Below, piece by piece: positions 133-11,865 of a stretch of DNA of 38,640 nucleotides. The position numbers and the translations under genes are program-made. This DNA comes from a virus, in IMG/VR virus record IMGVR_UViG_3300031576_000172, positions 1 through 38,640 of that record; one strand, 5' to 3'. The stretch's first letter is position 1; each line of letters starts with the position of its first letter. A model generated the notes under the pieces. It ran no database searches, was not told the DNA's origin, and saw only the letters and a list, made by a program, of their open reading frames with translations.

Positions 133-498
133 TATAGGGTTCCAAGCGAAAGTGAAGTTAGAGAGTTTGTTTATGCGAAGATTTCGCCGTATTTCTACAG
201 CGATGCGGATACAAGTATAATCGACGAAGTGTTCATCAAAGCTCCCGGAACAAATATATTTTTCAGCTATCGGTGTCATTGTCTCAAACATGGCATACCT
301 GGAACAAACAATCGGGTGCTTGATCGGGATCCGCTCTTCGCTCCAGAAGTGCCCCTGCTCATCGATGTAGTTCCCCGACGGGAAGCGCTCGGCCCCCAGC
401 CGGACGAGCTCTTTTGGCAGGACCGGAACCTTGCCGCCCCGATCGGACAAGACCCACCCGATCGTTTCCGGACAGTAGTCGCAGGGACGGGTGTTCAA
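130..498 (-). CDS. Hypothetical 122-aa protein with N-terminal CxxC
   Basis: Not recognised. It starts at TTG (496-498), which overlaps the stop of the cytosine methyltransferase as TTGA, so translation is probably coupled. The N-terminus has a Cys pair (C6, C9) followed by a compact segment typical of small phage zinc-ribbon proteins. The last third is much more AT-rich and reads less like a conserved protein, so the C-terminus may be degraded. It is the last gene before the probable terminator and P1. No function can be assigned. Confidence 0.5.
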   Translation of the reverse strand: MNTRPCDYCPETIGWVLSDRGGKVPVLPKELVRLGAERFPSGNYIDEQGHFWSEERIPIKHPIVCSRYAMFETMTPIAEKYICSGSFDEHFVDYTCIRIAVEIRRNLRINKLSNFTFAWNPI

Positions 499-1973
499 AA
501 CTTCTCCTCCTCCCTTATCGCTTTGAAGATTTCCGCCGCGACTTGCCAGACAATCGAATTCCCCAGTGCCTTCAATCGGGCAACTCTGTCCATGTTCATG
601 CGACTTTTTGCCGTCTGAGTGACCAATGCCACTTCATGTGACAGGTGTGGCAGAGAGTCTGCAAATTCTCCAGCGCGTTGTTCTTGATATTCCCATCTCT
701 GTGATGCACGTCCAGTCTTTTTGTCGATCCACACATTTCGCAAGAAGGCTTCCTGTGCTTCTGCGCTCTCAAATGGAAGGTTGTCTTGTCCTGTGGTTCT
801 AACAAAGTGTTCCCACAAGACTGCGAACAATTCTTCCGGCTGATATACCTTGTCGAGTCCTCCAATACTTTGCCGAACCGCTTCCTGTTGAATGTAGCTC
901 CACAGGTAGGGCATACCTTGTCGGGTAATTCTCTTTGCGGTCTGCCCATTCAATCCTCCTTGATTCCTGTGAATCCAATCGGATAGCCCATGAGGTATTC
1001 CACAAAGGCGGGTTGCAACTTCATACCAGTTTTCTTCCCAGCCTGACCTTTCGTCACCCCAACTTCTATCAGACTGTCCAAGGTGTCTCTTGCTTTTGAG
1101 TTTCCATGTCCCCTGTAATCCCTTACTGCCGGAGTTGGGAGTATCACCCCTTCCATCTGCTGTGCGAGCGTGCCCGTTGGTTGGCTGTCGCCCCGTGGCT
1201 TTCTTCCCTCCATGAGTTGCGAGGATGGAGTTTTGAGAAGTCCTATCACTTGACCCGTCAAGTGGCTCTTGCCCATCATCCCTGGATGCTCGCCGTAGAT
1301 TGCGCGGGGAGTGTGAAGCAGTGCCGGGATTTCTTGCGGAAGTGGAGACCTCTTCCCCGCCTTGAATTTTGCACTGCGACCCTTCGTTCCCGTATTGGTC
1401 ATTGTGCCCAACAATCCAGATTCTATCCCTCCGGTGTGGCGCACCTTTGGCACAAGCTGGAATAACAACCGGCGAGACTTGATAACCAAGACCTTCGATT
1501 TCTTTGAGGATTTGCTCGATGACCGCACCCATTTCTTCAAGGTCAAAGGTTTCACTCTCCACGTAAGAGTCGCCAGTCGGCTCGTCCAGACTGAAGATGC
1601 CAGGAGGGTTTTCAATACAAATCCAACGGGGCTTGCACTCGTCAATAACGCGGAACACTTGAGGCCAGAGCCAACGGTCATCCTTCTTGCCTTTTCGCTT
1701 CCCGGCAACACTCGCTGGTTGACATGGAACTCCGGCTGTGAGAAGGTCAACTGCCCCTCGATACTTTCTCGCATCGAATGTTTTGATGTCACCATGAATC
1801 GGTACCTCCGGCCAGTGTTTCTTCAAAACCCTCTGACAGAACTTGTCGATTTCGACAAATGTGAGTTGATGATGTTCCTTTCCCCATACCCAATCCGCTG
1901 CGAGCCCAAAGCCATTCAAGCCGGTGAAAAGCGGGATGTGGTTCCATTGCGTCGAGTTCGTTCCCCACTTCAA
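495..1973 (-). CDS. dcm: DNA (cytosine-5) methyltransferase, Dcm-like
   Basis: Transfers a methyl group from S-adenosylmethionine to cytosine C5. Visible motifs: I (PLFTGLNGFG, ~14-23), IV with the catalytic Cys84 (AGVPCQPASVAGKRKG), VI as ENPPGI from E121 (most relatives have ENV), VIII (GAPHRRDRIWIVG, ~177-189) and X (RLKALGNSI, ~466-474). Between VIII and X the sequence is polar and low in complexity up to ~residue 340, then more ordered. That stretch is where two other open frames lie (950-1795 and an HNH gene at 596-949). The start is TTG overlapping the RusA stop (TTGA), with GGTGGAG about 6 nt upstream. No cognate restriction enzyme is present, so protection from host restriction is the likely role. 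The target sequence cannot be told from this reading. Confidence 0.9.
   Translation of the reverse strand: MKWGTNSTQWNHIPLFTGLNGFGLAADWVWGKEHHQLTFVEIDKFCQRVLKKHWPEVPIHGDIKTFDARKYRGAVDLLTAGVPCQPASVAGKRKGKKDDRWLWPQVFRVIDECKPRWICIENPPGIFSLDEPTGDSYVESETFDLEEMGAVIEQILKEIEGLGYQVSPVVIPACAKGAPHRRDRIWIVGHNDQYGNEGSQCKIQGGEEVSTSARNPGTASHSPRNLRRASRDDGQEPLDGSSDRTSQNSILATHGGKKATGRQPTNGHARTADGRGDTPNSGSKGLQGTWKLKSKRHLGQSDRSWGDERSGWEENWYEVATRLCGIPHGLSDWIHRNQGGLNGQTAKRITRQGMPYLWSYIQQEAVRQSIGGLDKVYQPEELFAVLWEHFVRTTGQDNLPFESAEAQEAFLRNVWIDKKTGRASQRWEYQEQRAGEFADSLPHLSHEVALVTQTAKSRMNMDRVARLKALGNSIVWQVAAEIFKAIREEEKF
596..949 (-). CDS. HNH endonuclease overprinted inside dcm
   Basis: A 117-aa protein coded entirely inside dcm in another frame. 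Two Cys4 zinc sites are visible: C13/C16 with C41/C45, and C70/C73 with C100/C103. The second frames an HNH core (DVHHRDGNIKNNALENLQTL, H82-H83 then N90-N91, then H104 and H108). That arrangement is typical of phage HNH proteins and very unlikely in a chance frame. The ATG at 949 has a perfect AAGGAGG five bases upstream, placed inside dcm. It directly follows, in the same register, the stop of the 950-1795 frame. Likely a DNA-nicking or homing-type nuclease. How one DNA segment satisfies both dcm (residues ~342-459) and this protein is the main oddity. Confidence 0.75.
   Translation of the reverse strand: MGRPQRELPDKVCPTCGATFNRKRFGKVLEDSTRYISRKNCSQSCGNTLLEPQDKTTFHLRAQKHRKPSCEMCGSTKRLDVHHRDGNIKNNALENLQTLCHTCHMKWHWSLRRQKVA
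950..1795 (-). CDS. Second open frame through dcm (281 aa), uncertain
   Basis: This long open frame shares its register with the HNH gene and runs antiphase to dcm. Its first half covers dcm motifs IV-VIII and may be open only because the other frame is constrained. Its second half lies where the dcm frame is polar and repetitive, and it reads better as protein: LPTPAVRDYRG around residue 210 and LQPAFVEYLMGYPIGFT near the C-terminus resemble tails I associate with phage Dcm-type proteins. Its stop (950-952) abuts the HNH ATG. The start is unknown and no convincing Shine-Dalgarno was seen. Either a true overprinted gene, the C-terminal domain of an ancestral methyltransferase displaced by frameshift, or a shadow frame. 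Confidence 0.35.
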   Translation of the reverse strand: MVTSKHSMRESIEGQLTFSQPEFHVNQRVLPGSEKARRMTVGSGLKCSALLTSASPVGFVLKTLLASSVWTSRLATLTWRVKPLTLKKWVRSSSKSSKKSKVLVIKSRRLLFQLVPKVRHTGGIESGLLGTMTNTGTKGRSAKFKAGKRSPLPQEIPALLHTPRAIYGEHPGMMGKSHLTGQVIGLLKTPSSQLMEGRKPRGDSQPTGTLAQQMEGVILPTPAVRDYRGHGNSKARDTLDSLIEVGVTKGQAGKKTGMKLQPAFVEYLMGYPIGFTGIKED

Positions 1974-5346: not shown

Positions 5347-5375
5347 ATGGTAATCCATTCTATAACGAAAGTCAA
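5347..5375 (-). promoter_or_regulatory. Promoter P5
   Basis: Minus-strand TTGACT (5370-5375), 17-nt spacer, TACCAT (5347-5352). The -35 overlaps the stop codon of the ParB-like gene. The core around CGTTATAGAATGG (about 23 nt) is nearly identical to P4, and the leader shares AACCAACA and TCCAGGGAAGG (5302-5312) with the P4 leader. It should transcribe the ATPase-to-dcm operon. Confidence 0.65.
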
Positions 5376-6853
5376 GCACTCTTTTTCTTCGCGGCCCACT
5401 TGACTGGTTTCGCGGCCTTCTCCTCCTTCGGCAGCTTGATGCCTCCGACCTTGCAGAAGGCCCGAACGTTCCAGTTCTCGTACTGGTAGTAGGTGCCGAT
5501 CAGGAGTCCGATGATCAGCTGCCGGATCCCGGTCACCTTCCGGGCCTCGAGTTCCTTCCGGACCGCTCCGGCATGATCCCGCCCGCCATACTGTTCCTTC
5601 TTGGCCTCGAGTCCCATGACCTGGACCGCTGCCTGGGCCCCGAAGTGCTGCAGGCTCTTGATCTCCTCGTCGGCCAGATACTGGACGGCTCCCTTCTCGT
5701 TCGTGATGGCCTTCGGGTTGATGACCAGTTCCTTCAGCAGGATCCCGTAGCGCTGTTTCCGGACCTTCTTCTCCTTGCGCTCCTTCTTCTCGGTCGGGGG
5801 CATGGCTCGGTGGCTGGTCGGGACGTAGTCACCCTTGAGTGCCACCTTCATGGTTTTGCCCGTCCGATCCGGGTGTTCGCTGTCGAAGACGACCCCAATC
5901 GATTGACGGTTCAGCTTCTTGATGTTGGCCGATGGGATCTCCTGGTACTCTCCCTGGCCGAGCGCCTTGATGCCATCGATCATTTGAGTCTGCGGGTAAT
6001 AGCCGATCCGGTTGATCCCCACCACCTTCTCTTTCGGATGCTGGGCCTTCACCTGGTCGACCGCCCGGCGGAAGTGGCTTTTGAGTTTCGAGAGGAAGCA
6101 GGCGTCATCCAGACATTCATCGGCCTTGGCGCCATCGAAGAGGTCGATCGTGCCAGTCAGTGTTTTCTTCGGACAGGTGGTGCAGGCTCCTGCCGCCTTG
6201 ACGAGCTCGGCATCCTTCCAGGACCAGGGCGCCGAGGAGAGCGGTGTCCGGCCTTGGTTCAGGTGGTTGTCGATAGAGTGGATGTCCATAAGGTCGCTTC
6301 GGTTTTGACCGATGGTCCGGTCCTGGGTTTCGGCCGGATAGGGAGCCATTGCCTCCGCCACCGAGAGTGCCATCTTGCCGGCCCGGAGCAGCTCCTGTCC
6401 TTTCGGGGTCAGCTTCGTCAGCTGCAGTCGACGCCGGACTGTTGCGATCGATTGTCCCAGCACGGCCCCGACTTCCTTGAGCCCGGCATCGCCAGGGAGG
6501 CTCTTTAAGATCTGCTCCGCCACCCGGGCTTCGTCCAGTGGATGGAGGTTGGACCGGACGGTGTTGACCACCAGTTGGAATTCTTCTTCCGTCTTCGGTC
6601 CTGCGATCAAAAGGATGGGGACTTCTTTCAATCCCGCCGCTTTCGCTGCGAGATATCGGCGCCGGCCGTCGAGGATGTGGTAGGGCGTGGCCGCCGTGTT
6701 GATCTGCCGGATCACGATCGGCAGCAGGATCCCGGTCTCCTTGACCGAGGCGTTCAGAATCTCCTGGGCTTTCTTGTCGACCACGGTCCGGATGTTACCG
6801 TCGCCGTCGAGGAGCCCGATCGGTACCGTGATGGCGTTCGTCGTAGAGCTCAT
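5372..6853 (-). CDS. parB: ParB/Spo0J-like protein with zinc-binding insert
   Basis: A 493-aa protein. The N-terminal ParB/sulfiredoxin-like domain (~10-105) shows HILDGRRRYLAAKAAGLKEV and the NLHPLDEA helix start. A helix-turn-helix follows (~120-150, VGAVLGQSIATVRRRLQL). A Cys cluster (CTTCPKK ~225, CLDD.CF ~245) suggests a zinc site. The C-terminal half is basic and of unknown fold. Family members bind DNA, many with CTPase activity. In phages they serve partition, regulation or methylation control; no ParA is present here, so partition is doubtful. ATG overlaps the upstream stop (ATGA), with AGGGAAGG nearby. Last gene of the P4 operon. Confidence 0.85.
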   Translation of the reverse strand: MSSTTNAITVPIGLLDGDGNIRTVVDKKAQEILNASVKETGILLPIVIRQINTAATPYHILDGRRRYLAAKAAGLKEVPILLIAGPKTEEEFQLVVNTVRSNLHPLDEARVAEQILKSLPGDAGLKEVGAVLGQSIATVRRRLQLTKLTPKGQELLRAGKMALSVAEAMAPYPAETQDRTIGQNRSDLMDIHSIDNHLNQGRTPLSSAPWSWKDAELVKAAGACTTCPKKTLTGTIDLFDGAKADECLDDACFLSKLKSHFRRAVDQVKAQHPKEKVVGINRIGYYPQTQMIDGIKALGQGEYQEIPSANIKKLNRQSIGVVFDSEHPDRTGKTMKVALKGDYVPTSHRAMPPTEKKERKEKKVRKQRYGILLKELVINPKAITNEKGAVQYLADEEIKSLQHFGAQAAVQVMGLEAKKEQYGGRDHAGAVRKELEARKVTGIRQLIIGLLIGTYYQYENWNVRAFCKVGGIKLPKEEKAAKPVKWAAKKKSA

Positions 6854-10084: not shown

Positions 10085-10189
10085 TCACTCCTCCCCGGGG
10101 AAGGCCGGTTGCGCTTGTGCAAGGGCGCCGATGGAAAGAGCAAGGGCGAGCACGGCGGCTACTGTGTGTTTCACGACCGCTTCTTTCAC
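10085..10189 (-). CDS. 34-aa signal-peptide-like mini gene
   Basis: GTG (10187-10189) overlaps the pectate lyase stop as GTGA. The product is almost only a signal peptide: basic start, ~15 hydrophobic residues, then GALAQAQPAFPGEE. It has no Cys, so it is not an Rz1-type lipoprotein. It could be a small membrane peptide of the lysis module (antiholin or pinholin-like), or the stump of a lost exported protein. Translation coupling to the lyase supports expression. Confidence 0.5.
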   Translation of the reverse strand: MKEAVVKHTVAAVLALALSIGALAQAQPAFPGEE

Positions 10190-11865
10190 ATGAGGTAGCG
10201 TGGTTCGATCGGCAGTCCCGCCATTCGGAGCGTCAAACAGTGGTGCATATAGTGATCCATGTACGTTCTGCCGTCCGATGTGAATACTGCCGACTGCGTG
10301 ATTGAAGTCGTGGTCCCTCCAAAATAAACTTCCCAAACATCTGGGAGCCCATCGGAGTCCGTGTCCGTCAGCGGCGTTCCAGCCGTCATCGTCGGCCAAC
10401 CAACCGGCGAAACCGGCACGACAATGTCTTGCTCGACGTGACCAACCGACGATCCCGCAACGAGCGGAGTCCCAAACTGCGTATTGAATATGAGAAAACA
10501 GCCCGGCCCACCTGAGCCAATATCGTTGTTTTGAATCGACGAGAGATCAACGACCCTCGCCTGACCCGCGCCAGGACCAGAGTCAACAACATAGTTAAGC
10601 GCCTGATAGCGATTCGACGATGACCCAATTCCCGTTATAGAAATCTTGACTGAGTCTGCCGTCGGGCCCCTGCCCCAGTGAAGAATCGTCCCATAAGGAA
10701 AATTGATTTTCCTCGCCGTCACGCCATTGATGACTCTGCCCACAGCGCCTATCTCTTTGACTGAGGCAATGGCGGCGGAGTCTATCGCTGAGCGCGGCCA
10801 CGGCCCGACCTGGTTCAATAACAAATTCCCGGCAACCGTATCAGCATCCCAGTCAGTTCCGGTCTTGCCCATCAAGGGCTGCGTGGACTGATTCACGCTT
10901 GGTAGAGCCGTGACCAACCAGTCGTCCCCTGTATCGGTCAACCGATTGTAGCCCCTGTTTCCCTCAGCATACACGAGTTGCCCGGTCATGGAGCCGCCTC
11001 CGGTCGTGAGGATATATTTGTTCGCAGGTGTGTCTGCGCCGGGCTTGAAATAGTTCCGCCTGAATTCCAATGACGCAGGCGATGCCGCTCCGCCTCCAAT
11101 CGCTGTTGTTGCCTGGTAGTTGTAGACGTAGTTATCGTTAAACTCTGCCCTGCCTGCGCCAACCATACGGGCGTTTCTGTCCAGATTGTGAGCAAGGAGA
11201 TTTCTGATGAACGATACCGAATCCCCCCCCGTCATATGCCAGAGCAATCCCTTCGAGTGCTCAATCTCAGGGTGAATGCTGCGGGAGAGCGCATAGGCTA
11301 TGATCGTATTGGTGATGCTCAACCTGCCGCCGCCATCCCCGGCCGCGACATTCTCATCAATTCCCCAAACTGTAGAGCCGTGGTCAATGATAATGTTCCA
11401 GACCGAATCAGGATAGGCCTCCCCGGCTCCCATCTGTATACAATCCCTTGCGTCCGAGCGCACACCCGCTATAATGTCATCGCCCATCGCAACTCTGACG
11501 TTCTGCAAGATGACTTCAGGAGCGATGATCTTGAACGTGACATTCTTGAGCAAATTCCCCGATCCTGGCACACACTGATCGGGTACGGTCAGGTTTCTCT
11601 TTGAGACCGTGATGAGGCCGCCGAGGGAGTTGAAATCAAACGTCCCGCCGTTCTGCGCTATGACGATCCTCTTGCCAGATGAATCTTGGCACGCCGCCTT
11701 GAAGAGCGCCGCCGTCGTAGGACGGATAACCCTTCCGCCCCTTCCGCCCTTGGCAAAGCGTCCGAACCCCTCCGCCCCGGGGAAGGCAAGAAGTGGAGCT
11801 TGCGAGAACGCATGCGCCTCAATAACTAAGGCCAGTATCAAAATCCACTTTACTTTATGAGCCAT
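10186..11865 (-). CDS. Secreted pectate lyase-like polysaccharide lyase
   Basis: A 559-aa parallel beta-helix enzyme of the pectate lyase type, expected to cleave polygalacturonate by beta-elimination with Ca2+. A Sec signal peptide (1-~21, ending HAFSQ) leads to AFPGAEGFGRFAKGGRGGRV (~27-46), the usual start of this lyase group. IIIDHGSTVWGIDEN (~residue 150) and DRNARMVGAGRAEFNDNYVY (~230-250) fit the calcium site and helix turns. Near the C-terminus DTDSDGLPDVWE is a calcium-binding loop. No virion-attachment domain is seen. GAGGAGAAA precedes the ATG, and the start overlaps the upstream gene by 16 nt. Likely exported by the infected host, to digest plant or biofilm polysaccharide. Confidence 0.85.
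   Translation of the reverse strand: MAHKVKWILILALVIEAHAFSQAPLLAFPGAEGFGRFAKGGRGGRVIRPTTAALFKAACQDSSGKRIVIAQNGGTFDFNSLGGLITVSKRNLTVPDQCVPGSGNLLKNVTFKIIAPEVILQNVRVAMGDDIIAGVRSDARDCIQMGAGEAYPDSVWNIIIDHGSTVWGIDENVAAGDGGGRLSITNTIIAYALSRSIHPEIEHSKGLLWHMTGGDSVSFIRNLLAHNLDRNARMVGAGRAEFNDNYVYNYQATTAIGGGAASPASLEFRRNYFKPGADTPANKYILTTGGGSMTGQLVYAEGNRGYNRLTDTGDDWLVTALPSVNQSTQPLMGKTGTDWDADTVAGNLLLNQVGPWPRSAIDSAAIASVKEIGAVGRVINGVTARKINFPYGTILHWGRGPTADSVKISITGIGSSSNRYQALNYVVDSGPGAGQARVVDLSSIQNNDIGSGGPGCFLIFNTQFGTPLVAGSSVGHVEQDIVVPVSPVGWPTMTAGTPLTDTDSDGLPDVWEVYFGGTTTSITQSAVFTSDGRTYMDHYMHHCLTLRMAGLPIEPRYLM

What the first reader, a model, noticed from the sequence alone, without database searches (positions are those of the whole stretch)
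596..949. HNH nuclease gene overprinted inside a cytosine methyltransferase gene
A full two-zinc HNH protein (C13/C16, C41/C45, C70/C73, C100/C103, H82-H83) is encoded entirely within dcm in another frame. Its ATG has a perfect AAGGAGG inside dcm, while the dcm frame resumes its conserved motif X just after the HNH stop. Both frames read as protein: the dcm stretch ADSLPHLSHEVAL corresponds to the HNH stretch NLQTLCHTCHMKWHW. My impression is that similar SLxxLSHE segments occur in other phage Dcm proteins, which would make the overprint an old, shared arrangement in which nuclease and protecting methylase cannot be separated by recombination.
Basis: partly seen in the sequence, partly recalled or inferred. 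Interest (0 to 1): 0.8.

Follow-up and report, generated by a model that had tools for sequence, protein, structure and literature searches.

The report
Homing nuclease hidden inside phage methylase
Inside this phage's DNA-methylase gene, read one base out of step, lies a complete small DNA-cutting enzyme; comparison with dozens of relatives shows that it is a real gene that moves between phages, while the methylase is kept readable straight through it.

Summary
On the minus strand a 117-aa two-zinc HNH gene (596-949) lies wholly inside a C5-cytosine methyltransferase ORF (495-1973), in the +1 frame, behind a perfect AAGGAGG. It is not a chance ORF. All 42 hits (41 phage loci plus the window) at E < 3e-27 in an HNH-only comparison sit inside such a gene, always +1. 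In 37 distinct cases the methylase frame has 0 stops where synonymous shuffling predicts 170; free-standing HNH genes show no such depletion. The arrangement is therefore shared and selected. The HNH is not inseparable from the methylase: most relatives lack it, empty and filled alleles 88-90% identical exist, two phages share 588 identical bases spanning the HNH between diverged flanks, and HNH and methylase identities do not correlate (rho 0.10). It behaves as a homing-type mobile gene. The kind is published (ShiLan domain, 2025), but with a different methylase class, HNH family, frame and site. New points: ribosome-binding sites, a ~48-nt target duplication, and insertion at the end of a second overprinted protein. 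That protein carries methylase motif IX and resembles the small subunit of M.EcoHK31I. The duplication leaves both methylase polypeptides intact. Expression, cleavage and homing are untested.

The parts
495..1973 (-). C5-cytosine methyltransferase, frame A (alpha-like polypeptide: motifs I-VIII and X); the TTG start is the mechanical ORF start, the true start is uncertain
   Evidence: PF00145 1e-34, phrog_363 5e-62, M.HhaI 9e-12 in the PDB
596..949 (-). HNH endonuclease (117 aa, two Cys4 zinc sites, HH-N-H), frame B (+1 relative to Dcm)
   Evidence: AlphaFold2 mean pLDDT 86.9
955..961 (-). Shine-Dalgarno AAGGAGG of the HNH, inside Dcm
   Evidence: 7-nt match, dG -10.9; 78% of 36 family starts have a >=4-nt match against 22% of control ATGs
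950..1795 (-). second overprinted ORF in frame B (beta-like; phrog_1008), ending with TGA directly before the HNH ATG; its own start is not settled
   Evidence: the family-level frame-B constraint is
953..1018 (-). LQPAFVEYLMGYPIGFTGIKED, frame B: motif IX-like C-terminus of the beta-like ORF
   Evidence: compare LNPAHSRWLMGFPPEWD in relatives
975..1010 (-). RLCGIPHGLSDW, frame A reading of the left flank of the insertion
537..578 (-). Dcm motif X RLKALGNSIVWQVA, frame A, right flank of the insertion
1719..1727 (-). Dcm catalytic PCQ (motif IV)
1422..1445 (-). Dcm motif VIII region GAPHRRDR
966..982 (-). possible left copy of the duplicated target (17 nt, 76% identical to 563-579); weak, may be chance
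563..579 (-). possible right copy of the duplicated target

Best explanation
The HNH is a homing-type mobile endonuclease gene that has inserted into phage C5-methylase genes, without an intron or intein, and survives by being readable through. It sits just before the codons of methylase motif X. It is started by its own ribosome-binding site, in many relatives directly behind the stop of a second methylase polypeptide (beta-like, carrying motif IX) in the same frame. The inserted stretch is a whole number of Dcm codons and avoids T before AA/AG/GA, so the methylase frame continues to motif X as a poorly conserved, probably loop-like segment. The target is duplicated (about 48 nt): the left copy completes the beta-like protein, the right copy completes the alpha (Dcm) protein, and both copies differ from the intact target. 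Inferred cycle: HNH cuts an empty dcm allele during co-infection, repair copies the insert and some flank, and filled alleles are immune. Shown: the overprint, frame maintenance, start signals, empty sites, and recent transfer between diverged genes. Inferred: translation, cleavage specificity, homing, self-immunity, methylase activity with the insert.
For: All 42 hits at E < 3e-27 (41 loci plus the window) lie in Dcm in frame +1. Stops in the Dcm frame: 0 against 169.6 expected, T3 before AA/AG/GA codons 0/897 against 753/2492 elsewhere (P=7e-117), free-standing HNH controls 1189 against 1236. L012 and L013 share 588 identical nt spanning the HNH, with flanks mostly 40-80% identical; L088 and L249 are 98-100% identical over most of the HNH against 37-50% in part of dcm. 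Empty alleles L253-L262 are 88-90% identical to filled L249, which carries 424 extra nt plus a 47-nt overlap. HNH versus Dcm identity: Spearman 0.10. SD at starts. Left and right copies preserve frame B and frame A respectively. No intron family found. A published parallel, the ShiLan domain.
Against: No expression, cleavage or homing data. The window's own subfamily (window, L003, L007, L087, L100) has no nucleotide-level empty allele here; mobility is inferred from sister subfamilies. The family HMM was trained on overprinted members, so 42/42 is partly circular, although the first scan used only four sequences and HNH residues. A domesticated role cannot be excluded.
Confidence: 0.83

Rival explanations
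1. A nested restriction-modification pair: the HNH is a restriction enzyme and the Dcm around it protects the phage, the overprint locking them together.
For: Small two-zinc HNH restriction enzymes exist (PacI is in the PDB list, at a very weak score); an active C5-MTase around a nuclease is suggestive; some PADLOC hits are to defence nucleases (ZorE).
Against: Most Dcm relatives lack the HNH. HNH and Dcm are not co-inherited (rho 0.10). PacI matched only at E=1.3, TM 0.19. The same HNH family sits at a different place in an unrelated Dcm of a Staphylococcus phage (before its motif IX).
Confidence: 0.08
2. A spliced element: the HNH rides in a group I intron or an intein removed from the dcm transcript or protein.
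For: HNH homing genes are common in phage introns; the target copy at the 5' end recalls intron ends, as discussed for ShiLan.
Against: No Rfam match in the window or in 8 invaded loci; a removed intron would not need its host frame kept open, yet stops are 0 against 170 expected; the insert is in-frame with the host gene.
Confidence: 0.04
3. The HNH frame is a relic or is not translated; the Dcm frame alone matters.
For: No expression data; annotators usually call only one frame.
Against: HNH residues invariant over 26 divergent sequences; HNH third positions are the fast ones; SD enrichment at its start.
Confidence: 0.03
4. A domesticated dual gene: the insert's Dcm-frame peptide or the HNH now serves the methylase (for example a DNA-binding arm or packaging nuclease), and transfer is ordinary recombination.
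For: Modest amino-acid constraint in the Dcm frame.
Against: Patchy presence, short scar-like alleles such as L169/L171/L251/L266, low-confidence fold of the insert in the Dcm frame.
Confidence: 0.08

Closest known systems
[quoted passage not shown] Gosselin 2023 PMC9957025, Arsenault 2025 PMC11855218)
   Same: HNH gene hidden out of frame in a phage DNA methylase, no stops in the methylase frame, no intron or intein, patchy homing-like spread, target-like sequence repeated at the 5' end of the insert.
   Different: ShiLan gp65 is an amino-methyltransferase (TDPPY), its HNH is a different type in the third frame with a GTG start and no RBS, at another site. Here: C5-MTase, two-Cys4 HNH, +1 frame, ATG with SD, insertion before motif X.
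Intronless homing endonucleases of T4-like phages (reviewed in PMC2988022, title and abstract only)
   Same: Free-standing phage nuclease genes that spread into empty alleles with flank co-conversion.
   Different: From general knowledge those lie beside, not inside, a host gene; here the gene is inside and the host frame is kept readable.
M.EcoHK31I, natural two-polypeptide C5-MTase (PMC3404938)
   Same: Motifs I-VIII and X on the large polypeptide, motif IX on the small one, as in frames A and B here. That its small polypeptide is read from another frame of the same gene is from memory of Lee 1995, not checked.
   Different: No HNH described; membership of the window's pair in that family was not tested by direct alignment.
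M.AquI, two-polypeptide C5-MTase (PMC3404938)
   Same: Split-type loci L011, L015, L020, L098 carry I-VIII in one ORF and motif IX and X in the overlapping one.
   Different: The window keeps motif X in the frame of motifs I-VIII.

Membership tests
C5-cytosine DNA methyltransferase | PF00145 domain with PCQ, ENV/ENP and motif X | tested here: met
   PF00145 1e-34; motifs located; invariant in 15 sequences
HNH endonuclease | HNH domain with conserved H, N, H and zinc Cys | tested here: met
   PF01844 at cut-off in the window, 25 of 26 members match; invariant C/H/N
Out-of-frame homing HNH in phage methylase (ShiLan kind) | HNH wholly nested in a methylase ORF in another frame, methylase frame open | tested here: met
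Out-of-frame homing HNH in phage methylase (ShiLan kind) | Patchy distribution decoupled from the methylase | tested here: met
   (for the family; not for the window's own subfamily)
ShiLan domain proper | Same host methylase class, HNH type, frame and site as ShiLan gp65 | tested here: not met
   amino-MTase, different HNH, third frame
Homing endonuclease | Cuts the empty allele and is copied into it | not testable with these tools
   only indirect evidence
Group I intron | Conserved intron RNA | tested here: not met
   no Rfam match
Type II restriction-modification pair | REase and MTase co-inherited | tested here: not met
Type II restriction-modification pair | REase and MTase share a recognition sequence | not testable with these tools
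   needs cleavage and methylation assays
M.EcoHK31I-type two-frame C5-MTase | Motif IX on a separate polypeptide read from another frame | tested here: inconclusive
   frame-B coding pattern is strong in relatives and motif IX resemblance is visual; no Pfam match for split-type B ORFs

The most novel reading that the evidence does not exclude
The host gene is already doubly coded: a two-polypeptide C5-methylase whose motif IX subunit is overprinted in frame B. The HNH is a third coding layer placed exactly at the end of that subunit, with a target duplication in which one copy is kept for the subunit's frame and the other for the main methylase frame, and with HNH translation coupled to the subunit's stop. 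This is a mobile gene adapted to damage neither of two overlapping genes.
Probability: 0.55. Interest if true: 0.78.

Novelty: new variant of a known kind. Interest (0 to 1): 0.62.

Why it matters
Fully nested genes with two functional frames are rare and hard to prove in phages with double-stranded DNA; here frame maintenance is shown with a large controlled effect. The family answers part of the open question in the ShiLan work (how hidden nucleases are translated) with visible ribosome-binding sites and stop-start junctions. It also supplies empty, filled and scar-like alleles for a direct homing test. Automatic annotation keeps one frame per stretch, so the nuclease or the methylase parts are routinely lost.

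Tried and rejected
Single-sequence scans with the window HNH found few relatives; the profile scans were needed. Relatedness to the ShiLan HNH was considered and rejected on sequence. Foldseek gave no significant PDB match for the HNH model (best E=0.026), so no specific nuclease family is claimed. Dcm in frame A modelled poorly with a shallow alignment (pLDDT 54; catalytic part mostly 80-93, middle and insert mostly <50), so nothing is built on it. Codon-position rates alone do not separate overprinted from free-standing HNH genes clearly; the stop-avoidance test does. Reading the overprint as chance was rejected. A conserved start for the frame-B ORF could not be settled. The weak repeat in the window is not relied on.

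Full report
WHAT IS THERE. The window is a 38,640-base virus record; PHROG matches to a terminase large subunit and a RusA-like resolvase fit a tailed phage. At its start, on the minus strand, lies a C5-cytosine methyltransferase ORF (495-1973, frame A). Frame B (+1) holds two ORFs in a row: 950-1795 (281 aa, phrog_1008) and, after its TGA, the HNH gene 596-949.

RELATIVES. A profile from four HNH proteins found 80 IMG/VR loci. The best of these lie inside a Dcm ORF in the other frame; the weaker ones are free-standing. A second scan and a profile comparison gave 42 hits (41 loci plus the window) at E < 3e-27, all inside a Dcm ORF and all in frame +1. Weaker hits (E > 3.6e-20) are mostly free-standing. 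The profile was built from overprinted members, so the clean split is partly circular, but no search step required a Dcm. Two isolated-phage groups carry it: Komagataeibacter phages phiKX1/phiKX2 (phiKX1: Dcm frame unannotated) and Staphylococcus phage CUB-EPI_14 (only the Dcm annotated). In the latter the HNH lies before motif IX, a different site.

BOTH FRAMES ARE HELD OPEN. With codons shuffled among identical amino acids of the HNH, 169.6 stops are expected in the Dcm frame of 37 sequences; none occurs. T at the third position before codons starting AA, AG or GA: 0 of 897, against 753 of 2492 elsewhere (P=7e-117). In 93 free-standing HNH genes the figures are 1189 observed and 1236 expected. 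The third frame of the overprinted genes is not depleted (129 against 111). Amino-acid similarity in the Dcm frame exceeds the shuffled null (z=10), and the third frame, which shares the free base, also exceeds it less strongly (z=5). Fourfold sites diverge less than in free-standing HNH genes at equal identity, yet the HNH third position is still the fastest. So the HNH is the main coding frame there, and the Dcm frame is kept readable with weak sequence demands.

START SIGNALS. In 36 family starts the upstream match to the ribosome is stronger than at other ATGs in the same genes (median -6.2 against -3.0 kcal/mol, P=5e-8; a >=4-nt match in 78% against 22%). 17 of 36 starts follow the frame-B stop directly. 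The window has the strongest site, AAGGAGG.

MOBILITY. Two scans with Dcm N-terminal parts, together with the earlier window-Dcm scan, gave loci of which 6 were invaded and 140 not; 114 of the latter have motif X in the ORF. L249 (filled) and L253-L262 (empty) are 88-90% identical over about 960-1400 nt to the left in most cases and continue to the right. The filled allele has 424 extra nt, and the matches overlap by 47 nt in the empty allele: an insert of about 471 nt, 157 codons, with a roughly 48-nt duplicated target. The junctions are visible base by base. L012 and L013 share an uninterrupted identical run of 588 nt, from 152 nt before the HNH to 67 nt behind it, between flanks that are mostly 40-80% identical. 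HNH and Dcm identities over 253 pairs do not correlate (rho 0.10, P=0.11). Some alleles (L169/L171, L251, L266) have short insertions at the same site without the HNH, which look like scars (inference).

THE SECOND OVERPRINTED PROTEIN. In 85 uninvaded Dcm genes the stretch between motif VIII and motif X has 6 frame-B stops against 166.5 expected, while frame C has 605 against 517. Codon-position divergence in close pairs is 0.09/0.05/0.21 in the N part (frame A coding), 0.22/0.06/0.06 in the middle (frame B coding, since A1 is B3), and 0.14/0.13/0.32 from motif X on. Given frame B as coding, frame A has 0 stops against 284 expected. Both frames are therefore coding there, frame B dominant. Frame B ends in LNPAHSRWLMGFPPEWD, which resembles motif IX of C5-methylases (by eye). 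PMC3404938 states that in M.EcoHK31I the large polypeptide has motifs I-VIII and X and only motif IX is on the small one. The same division is seen here. That the small polypeptide of M.EcoHK31I is read from another frame of the same gene is my recollection and could not be checked. For the window alone the frame-B opening is not significant (P=0.08); the claim rests on the family.

THE INSERTION SPARES BOTH. Scored against profiles from uninvaded genes, the right copy fits frame A (motif X) better than the left in 38 of 39 invaded loci, and the left copy fits frame B better than the right in 27 of 39. In L249 neither copy matches the intact target, which would protect a filled allele from its own nuclease (inference).

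ALTERNATIVES. No intron family was found in the window or eight relatives. A restriction-modification lock is disfavoured by independent inheritance, though it cannot be tested for specificity here. The HNH model is confident (pLDDT 86.9) but has no significant PDB neighbour, so its target type is open.

KNOWN OR NEW. The kind is published: the ShiLan domain and Applejack gp54/gp55 (PMC12613952). ShiLan gp65 is an amino-methyltransferase with a different HNH in the third frame, so the present family is an independent case. I found no paper describing it in the open library searched; subscription journals and preprints were not covered.

Noticed in passing
window 950-1795 (-); L254, L256-L262 and other uninvaded loci: Phage C5-methylase genes of this group carry a second, strongly constrained protein in the +1 frame between motif VIII and motif X (phrog_1008), resembling a separate motif IX polypeptide.
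   Followed up: partly
L011, L015, L020, L090, L097, L098: Split-type genes: the N-terminal methylase ORF and a long overlapping ORF with motif IX-like and X parts; the HNH is +1 relative to the latter.
   Followed up: partly
L169, L171, L251, L266: Short insertions at the HNH site without an HNH, possibly scars after loss of the nuclease.
   Followed up: partly
L001 (Staphylococcus phage CUB-EPI_14) 3001-3483: The same HNH family in an unrelated C5-methylase at a different site (before motif IX), also +1, with a GGAGGAG-type site before the ATG.
   Followed up: partly
L002 (Komagataeibacter phage phiKX1): The public annotation calls frame-B pieces as hypothetical proteins and leaves the 548-aa methylase frame unannotated.
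   Followed up: no
window 10186-11865 (-): 559-aa protein with a PHROG match to pectate lyase (2e-28), perhaps a tail-associated depolymerase.
   Followed up: no
window 5372-6853 (-): ParB-like partition protein near the methylase.
   Followed up: no
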